Assembly: GCA_021776335.1 (NCBI GenBank)
Contig: JAJFGB010000009.1
Location: 62,001 to 126,000, forward strand
Length of the DNA stretch: 64,000 bases
Direction: 5' to 3'
Origin: Hyphococcus sp.
Lineage (GTDB): Bacteria; Pseudomonadota; Alphaproteobacteria; Caulobacterales; Parvularculaceae
In this document: in pieces, positions 28,307 to 33,972 of the stretch
How the letters are laid out: each line of letters opens with the position of its first letter
Numbering within the stretch: position 1 is the first letter of the stretch
Made by a program: the position numbers and the translations under genes
The notes under the pieces: generated by a model
What the model was told of the DNA's origin: nothing
Databases searched by the model: none
The model's input: only the letters and a program-made list of their open reading frames with translations

Positions 28307-30052
28307 ATGGATGCGGTACGCGATCGCCTGTTGGAATTTTCGTTTTTTGCCGGGCTGGATCCCGAGGCGTTGGATTCCATTGCCGCGCGCGGCGTTTGGC
28401 AATCATTGGCGGGCGGCTGGGAGCTTTTCGCTGAGGGCGCGGCCTCGGATGCATTACATTTTAATTTATCGGGACGGCTGATCATTGTTCGGTGCGGCGA
28501 GGCGGGTGACGAGGTCATCGGTTATGTGCGCGCAGGTGAACCCGTGGGCGAGATGTCGCTACTTTCCGGTGAGGCGCATTCGGCGTCGGTTTACGCTTTG
28601 CGCGACACGGAGGTTTTAACTCTTTCTCGCGGTGATGTTGAAGAGCTGATCCATGATCACGGCGACTTTGCGGGCGCGCTGGCCCGTGCGGTGCTGGGTC
28701 GGGCGCGCCACCCAAAAGCGAGTTTTCAACAATCGGCGCCACGCATTTTTGCACTGATCGCTTCGTCACCGTCCATAGATGTTGATATGCGTGCGAAAGG
28801 GCTTGCTGATCGGATTGCCCGTTATGGCGTAAATGTGGATTGGATGCCGGTGAGCGAAAACGCCCCGGACAGCCGCACCTTTGATCGGGCCGAAGAAGCG
28901 CAGGATGTATTGTTGCTTGCTGCGCGTGTTGATGACAGTCCGTGGTATCGATTTGTCATCCGGCACGCAGATCGATTTTTAGTAATGGCGCGCAGGGATG
29001 CGAAACCGCCGCGGCCGTTCCCGATGACCACAGCTGCCGGTGAACGGGCGCGAAAGTTCCGTTTGGTTGATCTCATCATGTATCATGAGGGCGCGCCAGC
29101 TTGTCCGGTTACAGAATGGATGGACGCTGTCGGCGCGGCGCGCGTAATCAATTGTCACGGTAGCGCCTGTGACGAACGTCTGGCGCGCATTGTATGCGGC
29201 AAATCGGTTGGCCTTGTTTTATCCGGCGGCGGCGCCCGTGCATACGCGCATATAGGTGCTGTCATGGCGTTGCGTGAGGCAGGCGTACCGATTGATTTTG
29301 TTTGCGGCGCTTCCATGGGCGCCGTGATAGCGGCGTGCATTGCCATGGGTTGGGATGACGAAGAAATAGAGGAGCGGGTTCGTGATGCTTTTGTCCGTTC
29401 GAATCCTTTGGGTGATCACGTATTGCCGGTTGTGGCGCTGACAAAAGGCATTCGAGTTGAAGAACGGCTGGAAAAGCATTTCGGTGGTGCGCTGATTGAG
29501 GAGCTTGAAATTCCCTTTTTCTGCGTTTCATCGGATATCTCCGAGGGCGTCGCGCGCATACATCGTCGCGGTGTGTTGTGCAAAGCATTGCGGGCGTCTA
29601 TCGCGCTGCCCGGTATTCTGCCGCCCGTGATTGATGGGGATGCGCTGCTTGTCGACGGTGCGGTTATCAATAATTTCCCAACAGACATAATGGCGAATGT
29701 CCATCGCGGCTTGACAATCGGCATTGATGTTGCGCGGCGTGGTGCGATCGACATCGAAGCATTTCGCGATCCGCCGGGTTTTTTTGCTTGGATCGCGCAG
29801 CGCGGGGCCAAATCGGCGCCGCCAATCGTTTCGTTGTTGATGCGTACAGCGACAGCGCGTCATGAACGGATTCTCAAAATACACCCAGCCGACATTATGA
29901 TTGCGCCACCGGTTCCCGGCGTAGAACTACGTGATTGGGAGGAGTATGATGAGGCGGTTTCAAACGGCTACCACGTTGCCAGGGCGGCAATCGACGAGCA
30001 CTGGGACTCGCTTGGCGGCATTGCTGCGACCGCGCGCAAGGCGGGTCCATGA
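28307..30052 (+). CDS. Patatin-like phospholipase with cyclic-nucleotide-binding domain (NTE type)
   Basis: 581 residues from the ATG at 28307; a GTG three codons upstream is equally close. Residues 10-125 form a cNMP-binding-like barrel (GELFAEGAASDALHF-like start, GEPVGEMSLLSGEAHSASV core). A middle linker (about 130-300) is followed by a patatin domain: oxyanion loop SGGGARAYAHIGAV, nucleophile Ser336 in GASMG and catalytic Asp in DGAVINNFP. The pair Ser/Asp acts as lipase or lysophospholipase at the inner membrane. The glutamate and arginine of classic cAMP-binding sites are not both obvious, so ligand binding is uncertain. It stands alone between two conserved operons. Confidence 0.9.
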   Translation: MDAVRDRLLEFSFFAGLDPEALDSIAARGVWQSLAGGWELFAEGAASDALHFNLSGRLIIVRCGEAGDEVIGYVRAGEPVGEMSLLSGEAHSASVYALRDTEVLTLSRGDVEELIHDHGDFAGALARAVLGRARHPKASFQQSAPRIFALIASSPSIDVDMRAKGLADRIARYGVNVDWMPVSENAPDSRTFDRAEEAQDVLLLAARVDDSPWYRFVIRHADRFLVMARRDAKPPRPFPMTTAAGERARKFRLVDLIMYHEGAPACPVTEWMDAVGAARVINCHGSACDERLARIVCGKSVGLVLSGGGARAYAHIGAVMALREAGVPIDFVCGASMGAVIAACIAMGWDDEEIEERVRDAFVRSNPLGDHVLPVVALTKGIRVEERLEKHFGGALIEELEIPFFCVSSDISEGVARIHRRGVLCKALRASIALPGILPPVIDGDALLVDGAVINNFPTDIMANVHRGLTIGIDVARRGAIDIEAFRDPPGFFAWIAQRGAKSAPPIVSLLMRTATARHERILKIHPADIMIAPPVPGVELRDWEEYDEAVSNGYHVARAAIDEHWDSLGGIAATARKAGP

Positions 30053-30070
30053 CGCCAAGTGCATTCGCGA

Positions 30071-30877
30071 TCAATGCTTGGTATAGTGAAAGGCGTGAAG
30101 CATCTCGCCCGCAGTATTTTTGACGATCTCGCATTGCATCTGCGACAGGCTAGTCCGCCAACGCCCAACACGCTCCGTGCTTAGGGGGTGGCGGAGATGC
30201 GAGCGGCTCTCTTGCTCGACGCCGACAAGGGGAATGTCGGTTTCATAAAACCGTATGACGCGGTTGTCGAAGGGCTCTTCGAGAAAACCGAACAATGCCT
30301 GCAGTGTTTTCTTTGGATTGCTGACCAAGGCCTCATAGTGAAGGACATGAAAACGCTTCGGATTGTTAATTGCTTGCGCAGCCTGGAACCCAATACCGGT
30401 AAGGCCGCCCCAATAGGCGGCCGCAGCAGTTGTGTCCGTCACATGGGGAAAGGGCTTGCCGCTCGTTGGATTGCACCAGTCGCGCTGCAGAAGTGACGCG
30501 ACGACATCGCGTCCGTCGCGGACAACGTGAATGAACTTCGCGTTTGGAAATAAAATCGCAAGGTCTTGGAATGCCAGGACATTAAGCGGTGTTTTTTCAA
30601 CAATCAGTCGGCTCTGCGATGTAGCGGGCGCCTTCGCCAATAATTTCCAAAGTGCGGTTGAAAAATTTTTATTTACCGCTTGGGGAGCAAGGGCGAAGTG
30701 GGCTTCGTGCAATTCTCCGAGCTGTGATGAAAATGCTCGCCATTGCAACGCCAGTCCAGGCAGGATGCCGGTGTCGGGGCCACAAAAAATATGCGGGTGC
30801 GCGCTGAGGATAGCGCGCAGCAGTGTTAAGCCGGATCGCGGCGCCCCTCCGGCGAAGACGAGCCCCTTACCAGTCAT
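30071..30877 (-). CDS. Sulfotransferase resembling tyrosylprotein sulfotransferase (second of pair)
   Basis: 268 residues from the ATG at 30877, overlapping the preceding gene by 11 bases; an ATG at 30889 is the alternative. The PAPS 5'-phosphate loop is GGAPRSGLTLLRAIL and the 3'-phosphate strand is FIHVVRDGRDVVASLL; EKTPLNVLAF supplies the conserved Lys. The spacing and the block CGPDTGILP resemble animal TPST and the gene upstream. Asp35 replaces the glutamate, and Gly37 replaces the arginine, that I recall as active-site residues in TPST, so its substrate or activity may differ from its neighbour. Cytoplasmic by sequence: no signal peptide. Confidence 0.85.
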   Translation of the reverse strand: MTGKGLVFAGGAPRSGLTLLRAILSAHPHIFCGPDTGILPGLALQWRAFSSQLGELHEAHFALAPQAVNKNFSTALWKLLAKAPATSQSRLIVEKTPLNVLAFQDLAILFPNAKFIHVVRDGRDVVASLLQRDWCNPTSGKPFPHVTDTTAAAAYWGGLTGIGFQAAQAINNPKRFHVLHYEALVSNPKKTLQALFGFLEEPFDNRVIRFYETDIPLVGVEQESRSHLRHPLSTERVGRWRTSLSQMQCEIVKNTAGEMLHAFHYTKH

Positions 30878-31670
30878 TGTCGCGTGCATATTCGAGTTTC
30901 ATCAAGAGGGCGCCGGCTTGTCCTTTGATCGCCGCTTTTGTCTCTTCGGAAAAGTCTTGCCGCCAGCGGCCAACGGACTGGGTATATAACGGCTTTGCGA
31001 TCTGACCCTCGCTGGCTTCCGCGACGCCGGTTCGAATTTTATCGCCTAGGTGAAATGACAGCGTTTGGTCGCTCCAGGGCTCATCCAAAAAGCCAAAAAG
31101 GCGGCCTAGCGCTTCGCGCGGATTTGCAACAAGATTTTCATAACGAATTTCAAAGACTCGAATGCCGGCATCTCTGGCATTGAGGCCAGTGGTGACGTGA
31201 TGCGCCCAGGTCGCCGCTGCGATCGCCGGATTACGCGTCATCTCCATGGGTTTGCCGGTTCGGGTGTCCGTCCAGTCCATAGTGAGAAGGGAGGCGACGA
31301 CATCACGGCCATCGCGAATGACATGTACGAAGTCGGCGTCTGGAAAGAGCTCGTTGAGTTCAGTGAAATGCAGCACATTTGCCGGGGTCTTCTCCGCGAT
31401 TCGATCCTTACCCCGCAAAATGAGATAGGGCTCAAGGAAAGAACCTATAAGATCGTGAAAGGCCTCCTTAAGATGCTCGGGCGTCAGGCCGTAATATGTT
31501 TCCAGCGTATCGCCGCATAATTGACGGGTCTGGGCAGAAAAACCTGCCAATGCCGGGATCACGCGCAATTCCGGTCCGCACGCAATATTCGGGTGCCGGT
31601 CAATCATGGCGCGTATAAGTGTTGTGCCGGATCGCGGCATGCCGCCGATAAATATGGGCCGCGAAATCAT
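30867..31670 (-). CDS. Sulfotransferase resembling tyrosylprotein sulfotransferase (first of pair)
   Basis: 267 residues from the ATG at 31670. The start RPIFIGGMPRSGTTLIRAM is strikingly like metazoan TPST (IFIGGVPRSGTTLMRAML in memory), as is ACGPELRVIP (TPST: CGEETRVIP) with Glu34 and Arg36 at the catalytic positions. EKTPANVLHF, FVHVIRDGRDVVASLL and FEIRYENLVANPREAL complete the PAPS-binding fold. The C-terminal SVGRWRQDF block is common to both sulfotransferases here. It starts 7 bases after the 2OG oxygenase stop and overlaps the next gene, so the three are one operon. Protein or peptide tyrosine sulfation is an inference; a small-molecule acceptor is possible. Confidence 0.88.
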   Translation of the reverse strand: MISRPIFIGGMPRSGTTLIRAMIDRHPNIACGPELRVIPALAGFSAQTRQLCGDTLETYYGLTPEHLKEAFHDLIGSFLEPYLILRGKDRIAEKTPANVLHFTELNELFPDADFVHVIRDGRDVVASLLTMDWTDTRTGKPMEMTRNPAIAAATWAHHVTTGLNARDAGIRVFEIRYENLVANPREALGRLFGFLDEPWSDQTLSFHLGDKIRTGVAEASEGQIAKPLYTQSVGRWRQDFSEETKAAIKGQAGALLMKLEYARDNDW

Positions 31671-31677
31671 GTTATCA

Positions 31678-32493
31678 TCAACTTTGTGCGCCGGGCGCCC
31701 GATTGGGATCGGCGCCGGACCGCAGCCAACCGGTGATTGAATAACGCGACGCGCCCGCAAATGGCGCCACCGCGCTTACAGAGTGTTTTTGAGGAACGCG
31801 GAAAATGTTGAGCGCATTGAATTTTGGCGTGAAGGCTTCGATGACATGGCCGTTGGCGCCATAAAACTGCAGCAACCCGCCCCAATCAGCACGCCATTCC
31901 CTGGTCAAATTTAGGACATAGGCGCAACACCGGTTCTTGCCGGAGATATTGTCATCATGAACGGTCAGAAAATGGCCAGGCTCGTATTTCGTCGCTTGTG
32001 CGTCCGCGAATTTGATCGTGTTGTCGCCAGTAACGGCGCGAACAAACGCCAGGAAAGACGGGCTGTTGAGGAATTCGAAGGCCTGGCGCAGTAGCCCCTT
32101 TGACAGGCGACCGCTGAAATAGGAATCGTAAATAGGGTAGTTTGCAAAAAGATATTGAAAGTGGGAGCGGGCTTGACTGTGAACAGCGTCGGCAAATTTG
32201 ATCTGATCATCGTTTGAAAGCCCCGCTATTCCAGATGCATCGAGGTCCAAATGACGGCCATTGCTGTTTGTGACGATATTCCAGTGCGTATCTTTCTTCA
32301 TCGTGTTGACTATGTTTTCCGCGCTCTGAGCCGCCAGGATGTCAGGGATGTGGACCCGGCCCGACGATTCAAAGCGGTTGCGCAAGTCAGTCAAATCGTT
32401 TCGTTTTGCCAAACAAAGATCGTCGCATCGCGTTAACGATTGTCCGATCGTTGCGTGATCGTTCGACGTGTTTGTAAGATTCGATGTGCTCAT
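31678..32493 (-). CDS. 2OG-Fe(II) oxygenase, prolyl-hydroxylase-like (OGFOD1/PHD type)
   Basis: 271 residues. The iron triad is His179-x-Asp181 (FLTVHDDNISG) and His237 (VPQKHSVSAV), and the 2-oxoglutarate Arg is Arg250 in SRYSITGWLRS. The order YVLNLTREWRADWGGLLQF, FTPKFNALNIFRV, then RYSITGW closely follows Tpa1/OGFOD1 and PHD2-type prolyl hydroxylases, which act on protein prolines. It opens the operon with two TPST-like sulfotransferases. The product could be a hydroxylated and sulfated protein. No signal peptide. The N-terminal 40 residues are not conserved in my memory of the family. Confidence 0.87.
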   Translation of the reverse strand: MSTSNLTNTSNDHATIGQSLTRCDDLCLAKRNDLTDLRNRFESSGRVHIPDILAAQSAENIVNTMKKDTHWNIVTNSNGRHLDLDASGIAGLSNDDQIKFADAVHSQARSHFQYLFANYPIYDSYFSGRLSKGLLRQAFEFLNSPSFLAFVRAVTGDNTIKFADAQATKYEPGHFLTVHDDNISGKNRCCAYVLNLTREWRADWGGLLQFYGANGHVIEAFTPKFNALNIFRVPQKHSVSAVAPFAGASRYSITGWLRSGADPNRAPGAQS

Positions 32494-32704
32494 GAGCCAA
32501 AACTATGCGTTCCGTTCCGCTAAATCCTGAGGTCGTGGTGAGGAAAATGTGAGGGATGAACGGTTCGGCGAGCCGAGAGAACGCATCGTCGAAAAACAAT
32601 ATTCTGCGATTGAGCTTGAGGCCGATAGCGCGGTTAATCGGCAGGAACGGTAGCGGAATTCTTGGCGCGCAAATGTGAGTCGGATGAATTGAAGGGTGGC
32701 GTCT

Positions 32705-33190
32705 GTGAATCTCCAGGAGACAGAAGCCTATTTACTTTACGAATTTACCGTCTATCCGCGCCGCAATGTAATCGTAGGCCCGATCCAGACGCATCAGATC
32801 GAACCAAAGGTAATGGACGTGTTGTGCGCCCTGATGGTGCGCCACGGAGATGTCTTGTCGCGCGATCAACTGATCGCGACGGTATGGGGTGGTAGCGTAG
32901 GCGGTGATGAACGGCTCACAAGGGCAATTTCTCAGCTGCGAAAAGCGTTTATAGATGACGCGAAATCGCCGCGGTTCATTGAGACGGTGTCAAAGCGCGG
33001 TTATCGGCTCGTTTGTCCTGTTGCGGTCGAACAGAGTGGCCAGATCGATAAAAGCGGCGAAAAAACACCCTTTGATTCAGTCGCTTTTGAGCCGACCACA
33101 GATTTCGACCGCCGCGCGGCGATTATGGTCACCGGGCTGGCGGTTGGCGTCTTGGTAATCTTGGCAGTTGCGCTGCTCTCGCTGTCCTAA
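32705..33190 (+). CDS. ToxR/CadC-like membrane transcription regulator (short)
   Basis: 161 residues from GTG at 32705 (GAAGG nine bases upstream); a GTG at 32696 is possible. The N-terminal winged helix is of OmpR/PhoB type: LCALMVRHGDVLSRDQLIA, DERLTRAISQLRKAF and FIETVSKRGYRLV. After a 30-residue linker a single membrane segment (IMVTGLAVGVLVILAVALLSL) ends the protein, leaving almost no periplasmic part. CadC-type proteins sense at the membrane while bound to DNA; here the sensing part may be a partner. It is divergent from the oxygenase-sulfotransferase operon across 211 bp and is its most likely regulator. Confidence 0.85.
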   Translation: MNLQETEAYLLYEFTVYPRRNVIVGPIQTHQIEPKVMDVLCALMVRHGDVLSRDQLIATVWGGSVGGDERLTRAISQLRKAFIDDAKSPRFIETVSKRGYRLVCPVAVEQSGQIDKSGEKTPFDSVAFEPTTDFDRRAAIMVTGLAVGVLVILAVALLSLS

Positions 33191-33201
33191 TACTCGCACA
33201 A

Positions 33202-33972
33202 TCAGCGATTGATGGCGGTGAGCATATAATTGACATCGGTATCTTCACTGATACGCCAGATATCCATGAGCGGATTATACGAAACGCCGGCCTCGGCAGT
33301 AATGAAGAGGCCCGCATGCGTTAGCGCGGCCTTCGCCTCATCCGGTTTTACGAATTTGCGGGGGTCATGGGTGCCGGCGGGCAACCAGCGCAATATATAT
33401 TCGGCGCCTATCTTCGCCAACGCTACAGCTTTTAGCGTTCGGTTGATTGTCGCAAGCACCATCACGCCGCCTGGCTTTAGCAGTTTTACTGAAGCTTCCA
33501 GAAAAAGCGGAACATCGGCCACATGTTCAACGACTTCCAAATTAAGAACAACGTCAAATGGCGCCTCATTTTCCGCGACAAGCGCTTCGACTGTTGTCGT
33601 GCGATAATCTATATCGAGGCCGAGCGGCGAAGCATGCGCCAGGGCGGTTTTGATGTTGCGTTCGGCAGCATCGATTGCAACGACTTCAGCGCCGAGGCGG
33701 CGCATGGGTTCAGCAACGAGACCACCGCCGCATCCTATATCTATCAGGCGCAAACCCTCCATCGGTTTTTTGGCGCGCCGGTCACGGCCAAAATGGGCGC
33801 AGACGCCGTCGCGAATATAGGCCAGGCGTACAGGGTTGAATTTGTGAAGCGGCCTGAATTTCCCAAATGGATCCCACCACTCATCGGCGATGGCCGCGAA
33901 TTTTTCGATCTCCGCCGGGTTGACGGTGGTTTCGCCCGTCGAAGGCGTCGAAACTGTCTCAAATTGCGTCAT
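33202..33972 (-). CDS. ubiG: Ubiquinone biosynthesis O-methyltransferase
   Basis: 256 residues, typical for alphaproteobacterial UbiG. It adds both O-methyl groups in ubiquinone synthesis. Features are [28 protein letters not shown] loop [33 protein letters not shown], and [13 protein letters not shown] with GVSYNPL near the end. It is divergent from lysC, a pairing conserved in rhizobia and relatives. Confidence 0.97.

What the first reader, a model, noticed from the sequence alone, without database searches (positions are those of the whole stretch)
30071..32493. Operon of a prolyl-hydroxylase-like oxygenase and two TPST-like sulfotransferases
Seen: a 2OG-Fe(II) oxygenase with intact triad (His179, Asp181, His237, Arg250), 7 bp before a sulfotransferase whose GGMPRSGTTLIRAM and CGPELRVIP blocks mirror animal tyrosylprotein sulfotransferase, overlapping a second similar gene. 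Known: TPST-like RaxST sulfates the RaxX peptide in Xanthomonas; OGFOD1/PHD-type enzymes hydroxylate protein prolines. Inference: a bacterial proline-hydroxylation plus tyrosine-sulfation module for a protein or peptide.
Basis: partly seen in the sequence, partly recalled or inferred. Interest (0 to 1): 0.72.

Follow-up and report, generated by a model that had tools for sequence, protein, structure and literature searches.

The report
Bacterial protein hydroxylase–sulfotransferase operon
A bacterium carries a three-gene unit, one enzyme that probably hydroxylates proline in proteins and two that resemble the animal enzymes which add sulfate to tyrosine; similar enzyme pairs sit side by side in other bacterial families, which hints at a little-studied way of chemically marking proteins.

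Summary
On the minus strand lie a 2OG-Fe(II) oxygenase (OX), 7 bp later a tyrosylprotein-sulfotransferase-like protein (ST1), then an overlapping second one (ST2), all under purifying selection. ST1 matches solved TPSTs at 3e-28; a TPR-sulfotransferase domain of the same genome only at 0.002. ST1 keeps four TPST catalytic residues in 18 of 18 aligned sequences; ST2 does not. OX matches OGFOD1/Tpa1 best and has their prolyl-3-hydroxylase leucine, not the prolyl-4-hydroxylase tyrosine. The enzyme types are linked: 17 of 17 order genomes with ST1 have OX (82 of 249 overall), and in 113 OX loci every sulfotransferase found (13 loci) is the next gene, none further off in the fetched flanks. After collapse to lineages this support is modest (p 0.025 and 0.015). 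Elsewhere OX sits beside TPR-sulfotransferases, TPR-2OG oxygenases, TonB-dependent receptors, EF-Tu and ribosome-modification genes. No conserved small peptide or exporter was found at this locus. Best reading: a cytosolic two-step protein modification (hydroxylation plus sulfation); residue and target are unknown.

The parts
31678..32493 (-). OX: single-domain 2OG-Fe(II) oxygenase, prolyl-3-hydroxylase-like (HxD...H, Arg250; Leu176 and Arg188 at the P3H positions)
30867..31670 (-). ST1: TPST-like PAPS-dependent sulfotransferase with all four TPST catalytic residues (R13, E34, K94, S220); the ORF can be extended to TTG 31760
30071..30889 (-). ST2: diverged TPST-like partner (Glu to D39, Arg to G41, first Thr of the PAPS loop to Leu); overlaps ST1 by 23 bp; alternative start ATG 30877
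32494..32695 (.). 202-bp gap between OX and the divergent regulator; conserved in G010 without codon bias, so probably regulatory
32696..33190 (+). divergent winged-helix (Trans_reg_C) protein with a C-terminal hydrophobic stretch; a homologue is also beside this operon in G010 and beside ST1 in G243; candidate regulator

Best explanation
The operon encodes a cytosolic two-step protein-modification module. OX, which resembles the catalytic domain of OGFOD1, hydroxylates a proline in a protein. ST1, probably in a heterodimer with the diverged ST2 (TPSTs are dimers), transfers sulfate from PAPS to the same protein, either to a tyrosine or to the hydroxyl that OX makes. The target is a protein encoded elsewhere, not a small peptide of this locus; the best candidates by genomic association are TonB-dependent receptors and the translation machinery (EF-Tu, uS12). 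Shown here: homologies, conserved catalytic residues, operon structure, purifying selection, co-occurrence and recurrent adjacency. Inferred: protein rather than small-molecule substrate, heterodimer, order of steps, target.
For: ST1 vs TPST chains 3.3e-28, ST2 4.7e-22; control TPR-ST domain of the same genome 0.0019. TPST1 catalytic residues R79/E100/K159/S286 (PMC5562738, passages) = R13/E34/K94/S220, 18 of 18. ST1 model: Foldseek ranks 1-13 all TPSTs, TMq 0.69-0.73, next family 0.53. OX: OGFOD1 is the best PDB match by sequence, Tpa1/OGFOD1 by fold; Leu176 in 31 of 32 and Arg188 in 31 of 32 fit the P3H pattern of PMC4396695. 17 of 17 ST1 genomes have OX, against 82 of 249 overall; within the genus the 4 ST1 genomes are all among the 5 OX genomes of 21 (p 8e-4). 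13 of 113 OX loci have a sulfotransferase, always the adjacent gene, and 0 lie in 1.03 Mb of flank beyond 2.5 kb. APS kinase, hence PAPS, is present.
Against: No substrate or activity is known. OX-ST1-ST2 contiguity occurs in only 4 of the 17 ST1 genomes. Genomes and loci share ancestry: by genus the co-occurrence p is 0.025, by lineage the adjacency p is 0.015. The OX threshold (1e-10) counts both OX paralogues. G301 (87% complete) has an ST1-like gene and no OX match. CurM/Ols-type sulfotransferases, which act on small molecules (recalled), are the next-best match, nearer for ST2 (1.4e-13) than for ST1 (3.9e-12). The OX model is weak (pLDDT 54). Some OX loci neighbour metabolic genes (PrnB by Pfam; acyl-CoA dehydrogenase and PhhA-like by reading). 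The window operon itself has neither a TonB receptor nor a translation gene beside it.
Confidence: 0.5

Rival explanations
1. Small-molecule, lipid or glycan tailoring: OX hydroxylates a metabolite and ST1/ST2 sulfate the new hydroxyl.
For: Many PF13469 enzymes and many 2OG oxygenases act on small molecules (recalled); NoeE and CurM-type sulfotransferases are secondary matches of ST1/ST2. Some OX loci neighbour amino-acid catabolism (by reading) and PrnB. In G189 the ST pair lies near polysaccharide and type I secretion genes (by reading).
Against: ST1 is far closer to TPST than to the CurM type (3.3e-28 vs 3.9e-12; TMq 0.7 vs 0.53). No biosynthetic cluster is among the neighbours read at the window operon. 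OX is closest to protein prolyl hydroxylases.
Confidence: 0.25
2. One reading: tyrosine sulfation plus proline hydroxylation of a small secreted peptide, like RaxX or plant PSY peptides.
For: TPST-like catalytic set in ST1; RaxST shows that bacteria can sulfate tyrosine before export (PMC6637879, passages). Type I secretion genes lie beside OX in L043, four genes from OX in L047 and near the ST pair in L113.
Against: Comparison of all ORFs of 20 aa or more in 29851-33400 with G010 gave no convincing small gene; the conserved stretch upstream of OX has codon-position differences 9/7/8 and no match in G223 or G094. The 111- and 98-aa ORFs directly upstream of OX in G094 and G084 have 0 and 1 Tyr, no Pfam match and no counterpart in the loci compared. 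A substrate gene elsewhere in the genome was not searched for.
Confidence: 0.12
3. OX and the sulfotransferases are functionally separate genes that merely share an operon.
For: Most OX loci lack a sulfotransferase (100 of 113) and the ST1-ST2 genes are not next to OX in 13 of 17 genomes.
Against: Co-occurrence 17 of 17 and repeated adjacency with two different sulfotransferase architectures.
Confidence: 0.13

Closest known systems
Human/animal tyrosylprotein sulfotransferases TPST1/TPST2 (PDB 5wri, 3ap1, 8w5z)
   Same: Overall fold, PRSGTT PAPS loop, CGxE(x)RVIP block, catalytic Arg/Glu/Lys/Ser all present in ST1
   Different: No transmembrane anchor; the position of the next TPST1 Arg (106 by my count) is Ala/Ser/Thr/Met; encoded as an ST1-ST2 pair with one diverged member
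RaxST of Xanthomonas (sulfates RaxX)
   Same: Bacterial; modelled on TPST2 in PMC6637879
   Different: No RaxX-like small gene or RaxAB-like exporter seen beside the operon; RaxST, RaxX and RaxAB sequences were not compared or searched for
OGFOD1/Tpa1 uS12 prolyl-3-hydroxylases
   Same: Best matches of OX; metal triad; Leu and Arg at the P3H positions
   Different: OX is a single domain; OGFOD1 has tandem DSBH domains and is described as found only in eukaryotes (PMC4396695)
Pseudomonas EF-Tu prolyl hydroxylase PPHD (PDB 4iw3/4j25)
   Same: Single-domain bacterial protein prolyl hydroxylase; OX paralogues lie within 0.5 kb of the EF-Tu gene in 6 of 113 loci
   Different: P4Hs share a Tyr where OX has Leu; weaker match (0.0029)
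TPR-Sulfotransfer_3 and TPR-2OG-FeII_Oxy_5 proteins near TonB-dependent receptors
   Same: Neighbours of OX paralogues in several lineages
   Different: TPR architecture; function not known to me, and none of the rows listed is about them

Membership tests
TPST family (ST1) | Arg, Glu, Lys, Ser catalytic set (TPST1 R79, E100, K159, S286) | tested here: met
   18 of 18 rows of A1, window included
TPST family (ST2) | same catalytic set | tested here: not met
   Glu position is Asp in 14 of 15 and Glu in 1; R102 position is Gly in 14 of 15; the Ser nearest to S286 (placed by eye) is Ser in 13 of 15
TPST family | sequence and fold closer to TPST than to other sulfotransferases | tested here: met
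   (ST1 model pLDDT 69, pTM 0.74; ST2 by sequence only)
TPST family | type II membrane protein of the Golgi | tested here: not met
   highest 19-residue hydropathy 0.89 (ST1) and 1.23 (ST2); bacterial
TPST family | sulfates protein tyrosine | not testable with these tools
   needs assay
RaxX-RaxSTAB system | RaxX-like precursor and RaxAB exporter in the same cluster | tested here: not met
   by reading the neighbours and by the small-ORF comparison; no search with RaxX or RaxAB sequences
RaxST | sequence similarity to RaxST | not tested
   no RaxST sequence was fetched or typed
OGFOD1/Tpa1 subfamily | metal triad plus 2OG Arg, P3H Leu and substrate Arg | tested here: met
   H179 and D181 32 of 32, H237 31 of 32, R250 32 of 32, L176 31 of 32, R188 31 of 32; all present in the window protein
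OGFOD1/Tpa1 subfamily | tandem DSBH domains | tested here: not met
   271 aa; only a sub-threshold Ofd1_CTDD match, 24.5 vs 27 bits
Prolyl-4-hydroxylases (PHD2, PPHD) | Tyr at PHD2 position 310 | tested here: not met
   Leu in 31 of 32, Ile in 1
Any prolyl hydroxylase | hydroxylates peptidyl proline | not testable with these tools
   needs assay

The most novel reading that the evidence does not exclude
A general bacterial hydroxylation-dependent sulfation system: the oxygenase installs a hydroxyl (3-hydroxyproline) on a protein and the partner sulfotransferase sulfates it, or a tyrosine beside it, on large targets such as TonB-dependent receptors or EF-Tu/uS12. OX often occurs without ST1, but a close ST1 relative was found without OX in only one genome (G301), as expected if sulfation needs the hydroxylase. 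Two sulfotransferase architectures (paired TPST-like, TPR-fused) would have been recruited to the same oxygenase family.
Probability: 0.2. Interest if true: 0.87.

Novelty: new variant of a known kind. Interest (0 to 1): 0.62.

Why it matters
Protein sulfation in bacteria is known to me only from RaxX, and OGFOD1-type prolyl-3-hydroxylases have been described as eukaryotic only (PMC4396695). A module that joins both enzyme types, recurs in several families and in a second class of the phylum, and lies near EF-Tu, ribosomal operons or TonB receptors would give bacterial protein sulfation a testable system and would suggest a single-domain bacterial relative of the eukaryotic ribosomal oxygenases.

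Tried and rejected
Small secreted substrate: all ORFs of 20 aa or more in 29851-33400 were compared with the G010 locus. Apart from the genes themselves, mainly shadow ORFs and short stretches in the upstream gap recur; the best of those (99 nt, 75 identical) has position differences 9/7/8 and no match in G223 or G094. The 98-aa ORF before OX in G084 and the 111-aa ORF before OX in G094 have no Pfam match, were not kept by my codon-usage caller and have no good match in each other's locus or the other loci compared (one 36-residue match at 0.002 to L113).

RaxSTAB-like type I secretion: such genes lie beside OX in L043, four genes away in L047 and near the ST pair in L113, but not next to the operon in the window or in L039, L040, L042 (by clustering and reading).

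Translation-machinery reading on its own: I held it first because of RlmN, RsmB, RF-1 (ArfB-like), MetRS, IF-3, EF-P, EF-Tu, KsgA and an S10-operon insertion. 30 of 113 OX loci have one of ten such families within 0.5 kb (34 hits near, 10 at 2.5 kb or more, with nine times more far flank). But the families and their seed sequences came from these same loci, and shared ancestry is heavy. TonB-receptor/TPR-sulfotransferase clusters then appeared. I keep both as candidate targets.

TPR neighbours of OX in L058, L140 and L182 looked like TPR-sulfotransferases by length; Pfam showed TPR-2OG oxygenases. The 419-aa gene beside OX in L235 could not be classed and is not counted as a sulfotransferase. 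In 11 of the 60 extra OX loci my gene caller missed OX; tblastn found it in all 11, and one search counts all 113.

Not run: a tree of the sulfotransferases, a second structural alignment (VIA), a genome-wide phylogenetic profile, a search for RaxX/RaxST relatives.
Full report
Observation. OX has the stated His179, Asp181, His237 and Arg250. The ST1 ORF can start at TTG 31760 inside OX, but ATG 31670, 7 bp after the OX stop, fits the shared start MISRPIF of its G010 orthologue. ST2 overlaps ST1 by 23 bp. The genome is an assembly of 4.18 Mb in 11 contigs; its closest named relative found is a Marinicaulis MAG with 76% identical ST1 (the taxonomy lists this genus as Hyphococcus, Parvularculaceae, Alphaproteobacteria). 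Third codon positions differ 2.4 to 4 times more often than first and second ones between window and G010 in all three genes.

Sulfotransferases. By phmmer ST1 matches TPST chains at 3.3e-28 (8w5z) to 4.8e-23 (3ap1, 3ap3) and the CurM/olefin-synthase domains at 5.3e-12 and 3.9e-12. ST2 matches TPST1 at 4.7e-22 and CurM at 1.4e-13. As a control, the sulfotransferase domain of one TPR protein of the same genome (one of 16 PF13469 places, ST1 and ST2 included) matches TPSTs at 0.0019 at best. The TPST1 paper (PMC5562738, passages) names R79, E100, K159 and S286 as catalytic and describes homodimers. By alignment these are R13, E34, K94 and S220 of ST1, invariant in 18 of 18 rows; the R102 position is Arg in 17 of 18 (the role of R102 is recalled). 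ST2 keeps Arg and Lys but has Asp for Glu (14 of 15), Gly at R102 (14 of 15) and Leu for the first Thr of the PAPS loop (13 of 13 rows with letters). So ST1 is the likely catalyst and ST2 a partner; a heterodimer is inference. Of the 17 ST1 genomes of the order search, ST2 lies directly downstream in 16; in G243 the contig ends first. The AlphaFold2 model of ST1 (five-row alignment, pLDDT 69, pTM 0.74) has TPSTs at Foldseek ranks 1-13, TMq 0.69-0.73; the next family is at 0.53. No membrane stretch was seen by hydropathy. One APS kinase gene is present.

Oxygenase. OX's best PDB match is OGFOD1 (1.2e-7 for the whole sequence, 3.7e-6 for the best domain), then EGLN1/2 (from 2.5e-5) and the P. 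putida P4H (0.0029). The model is weak (pLDDT 54), but Foldseek puts Tpa1 and OGFOD1 at ranks 1-8, then P. putida P4H and PHD2. [quoted passage not shown] OX has Arg188 (31 of 32 rows) and Leu176 (31 of 32, one Ile) at these positions; the alignment has no gap between Leu176 and His179. [quoted passage not shown] OX is thus a single-domain, P3H-like enzyme; activity is untested.

Coupling. In 249 genomes of the order, OX (either paralogue, E<=1e-10) is in 82 and ST1 (E<=1e-30) in 17; all 17 have OX. The chance by genome is 2e-9, by genus (5 of 5 within 24 of 48) 0.025, and within the window's genus (4 ST1 genomes, all among the 5 OX genomes of 21) 8e-4; none is corrected for ancestry. In the class sample ST1-like matches at E<=1e-20 occur in 9 of 367 genomes besides G000; only one is close (G301, 45% identity, 87% complete), and it has no OX at 1e-15. 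In the phylum sample (349 genomes) ST1 at 1e-30 is found only in G000, OX at 1e-25 in 13. The samples overlap in part.

Adjacency. I fetched 113 OX loci (plus the window) out of the 137 places listed, 15 and 20, which overlap; the rest were not fetched. A sulfotransferase is present in 13, always as the adjacent gene; none lies in the 1.03 Mb of fetched flank beyond 2.5 kb, where about 4 would be expected at the density of the window's genome. By locus p is 1e-6; collapsed to four lineages it is 0.015. The 13 are the four OX-ST1-ST2 loci (window, L039, L040, L042), six OX-TPR-sulfotransferase loci of one family (L213, L214, L216-L218, L220) and three from two other families (L238, L239, L245), of which L238 and L239 belong to another class. 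Pfam confirmed the sulfotransferase domain in the window, L213, L214, L218, L220, L238, L239 and L245; the others rest on my HMM.

Targets. In L213, L216, L217, L218 and L220 the order is EF-Tu, OX, TPR-sulfotransferase. A TPR-2OG oxygenase-like gene follows in L213 and L216-L218 by reading (Pfam for the homologue in L214), and a TonB-dependent receptor lies further on by HMM. In L153 the oxygenase sits between tuf and rpsJ in the ribosomal operon. L245 has receptor, TPR-sulfotransferase, OX and TPR-2OG oxygenase; L238 has an ExbD gene by Pfam and L239 the same arrangement by reading. The receptor subfamily (E<=1e-60, up to 6 kb away) is in 16 of 113 OX loci (some seeds came from these loci, no control). 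One of ten translation families lies within 0.5 kb in 30 of 113 (chosen after the fact). ST1-ST2 pairs without OX lie within three called genes of an RsmB-like gene in nine loci of one genus (Pfam for L106 only) and beside IF-3 in L114. The window operon itself has no such neighbour: its flanks are a patatin/cNMP protein, the divergent winged-helix protein whose homologue also flanks the operon in G010 and ST1 in G243, and ubiG-, lysC- and ptsP-like genes (by reading). Both target classes are inference by association.

Peptide model. No convincing small gene was found beside the operon, and no exporter is among the neighbours read. The upstream gap is conserved with G010 evenly over codon positions, as for regulatory DNA. 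A substrate elsewhere in the genome was not searched for.

Literature. I saw the listed rows of searches (15 of 355; 15 of 40; 8 of 70; 12 of 30; 0; 10 of 10; 10 of 76; 10 of 35; 6 of 6). None of these rows is about an oxygenase-sulfotransferase operon or about sulfated EF-Tu or ribosomal proteins; unlisted rows were not seen and most subscription papers are not held. PMC4682802 (passages) describes EF-Tu switch-I hydroxylation in Pseudomonas; PMC6637879 (passages) describes RaxST and its dispersed homologues.

Verdict. A protein hydroxylation-plus-sulfation module is the best reading (0.5); the residue, the order of steps and the target are open.

Noticed in passing
L245 (G897), L238 (G889), L239 (G906), L242 (G857): Clusters of TonB-dependent receptor and/or ExbD-type genes with OX and TPR-2OG oxygenase (plus TPR-sulfotransferase except in L242) in other families of the phylum; function not known to me.
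   Followed up: partly
L213, L216, L217, L218, L220: EF-Tu gene, OX paralogue and TPR-sulfotransferase gene in a row, the last two overlapping or within 50 bp.
   Followed up: partly
L153:5318-10945: An OX paralogue inserted between tuf and rpsJ inside a ribosomal-protein operon (rpsL-rpsG-fusA-tuf-OX-rpsJ; rpsL, tuf and rpsJ by Pfam, the rest by reading).
   Followed up: partly
L059:9555-11482 (own genome G000:C8): Second OX of the window's genome overlaps a PrnB-family gene (PF08933, 1.6e-169); the same pair is in G010 (L146).
   Followed up: no
L060:7312-12828 (own genome G000:C10): Four TPR-sulfotransferase genes in tandem, divergent from an RsmB-like gene (the latter by reading only).
   Followed up: no
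L115:9308-11482: Three OX genes in tandem in G111; tandem pairs also in L138, L144, L238 and L239.
   Followed up: no
L235:7464-8723: 419-aa gene directly after OX and before rlmN, with a GSGKTGTSS motif and a C-terminal TPR match; no sulfotransferase model matches it.
   Followed up: partly
L039:1-4176: In G010 a large predicted secreted protein (by reading) lies downstream of ST2, where the window has the patatin/cNMP gene.
   Followed up: no
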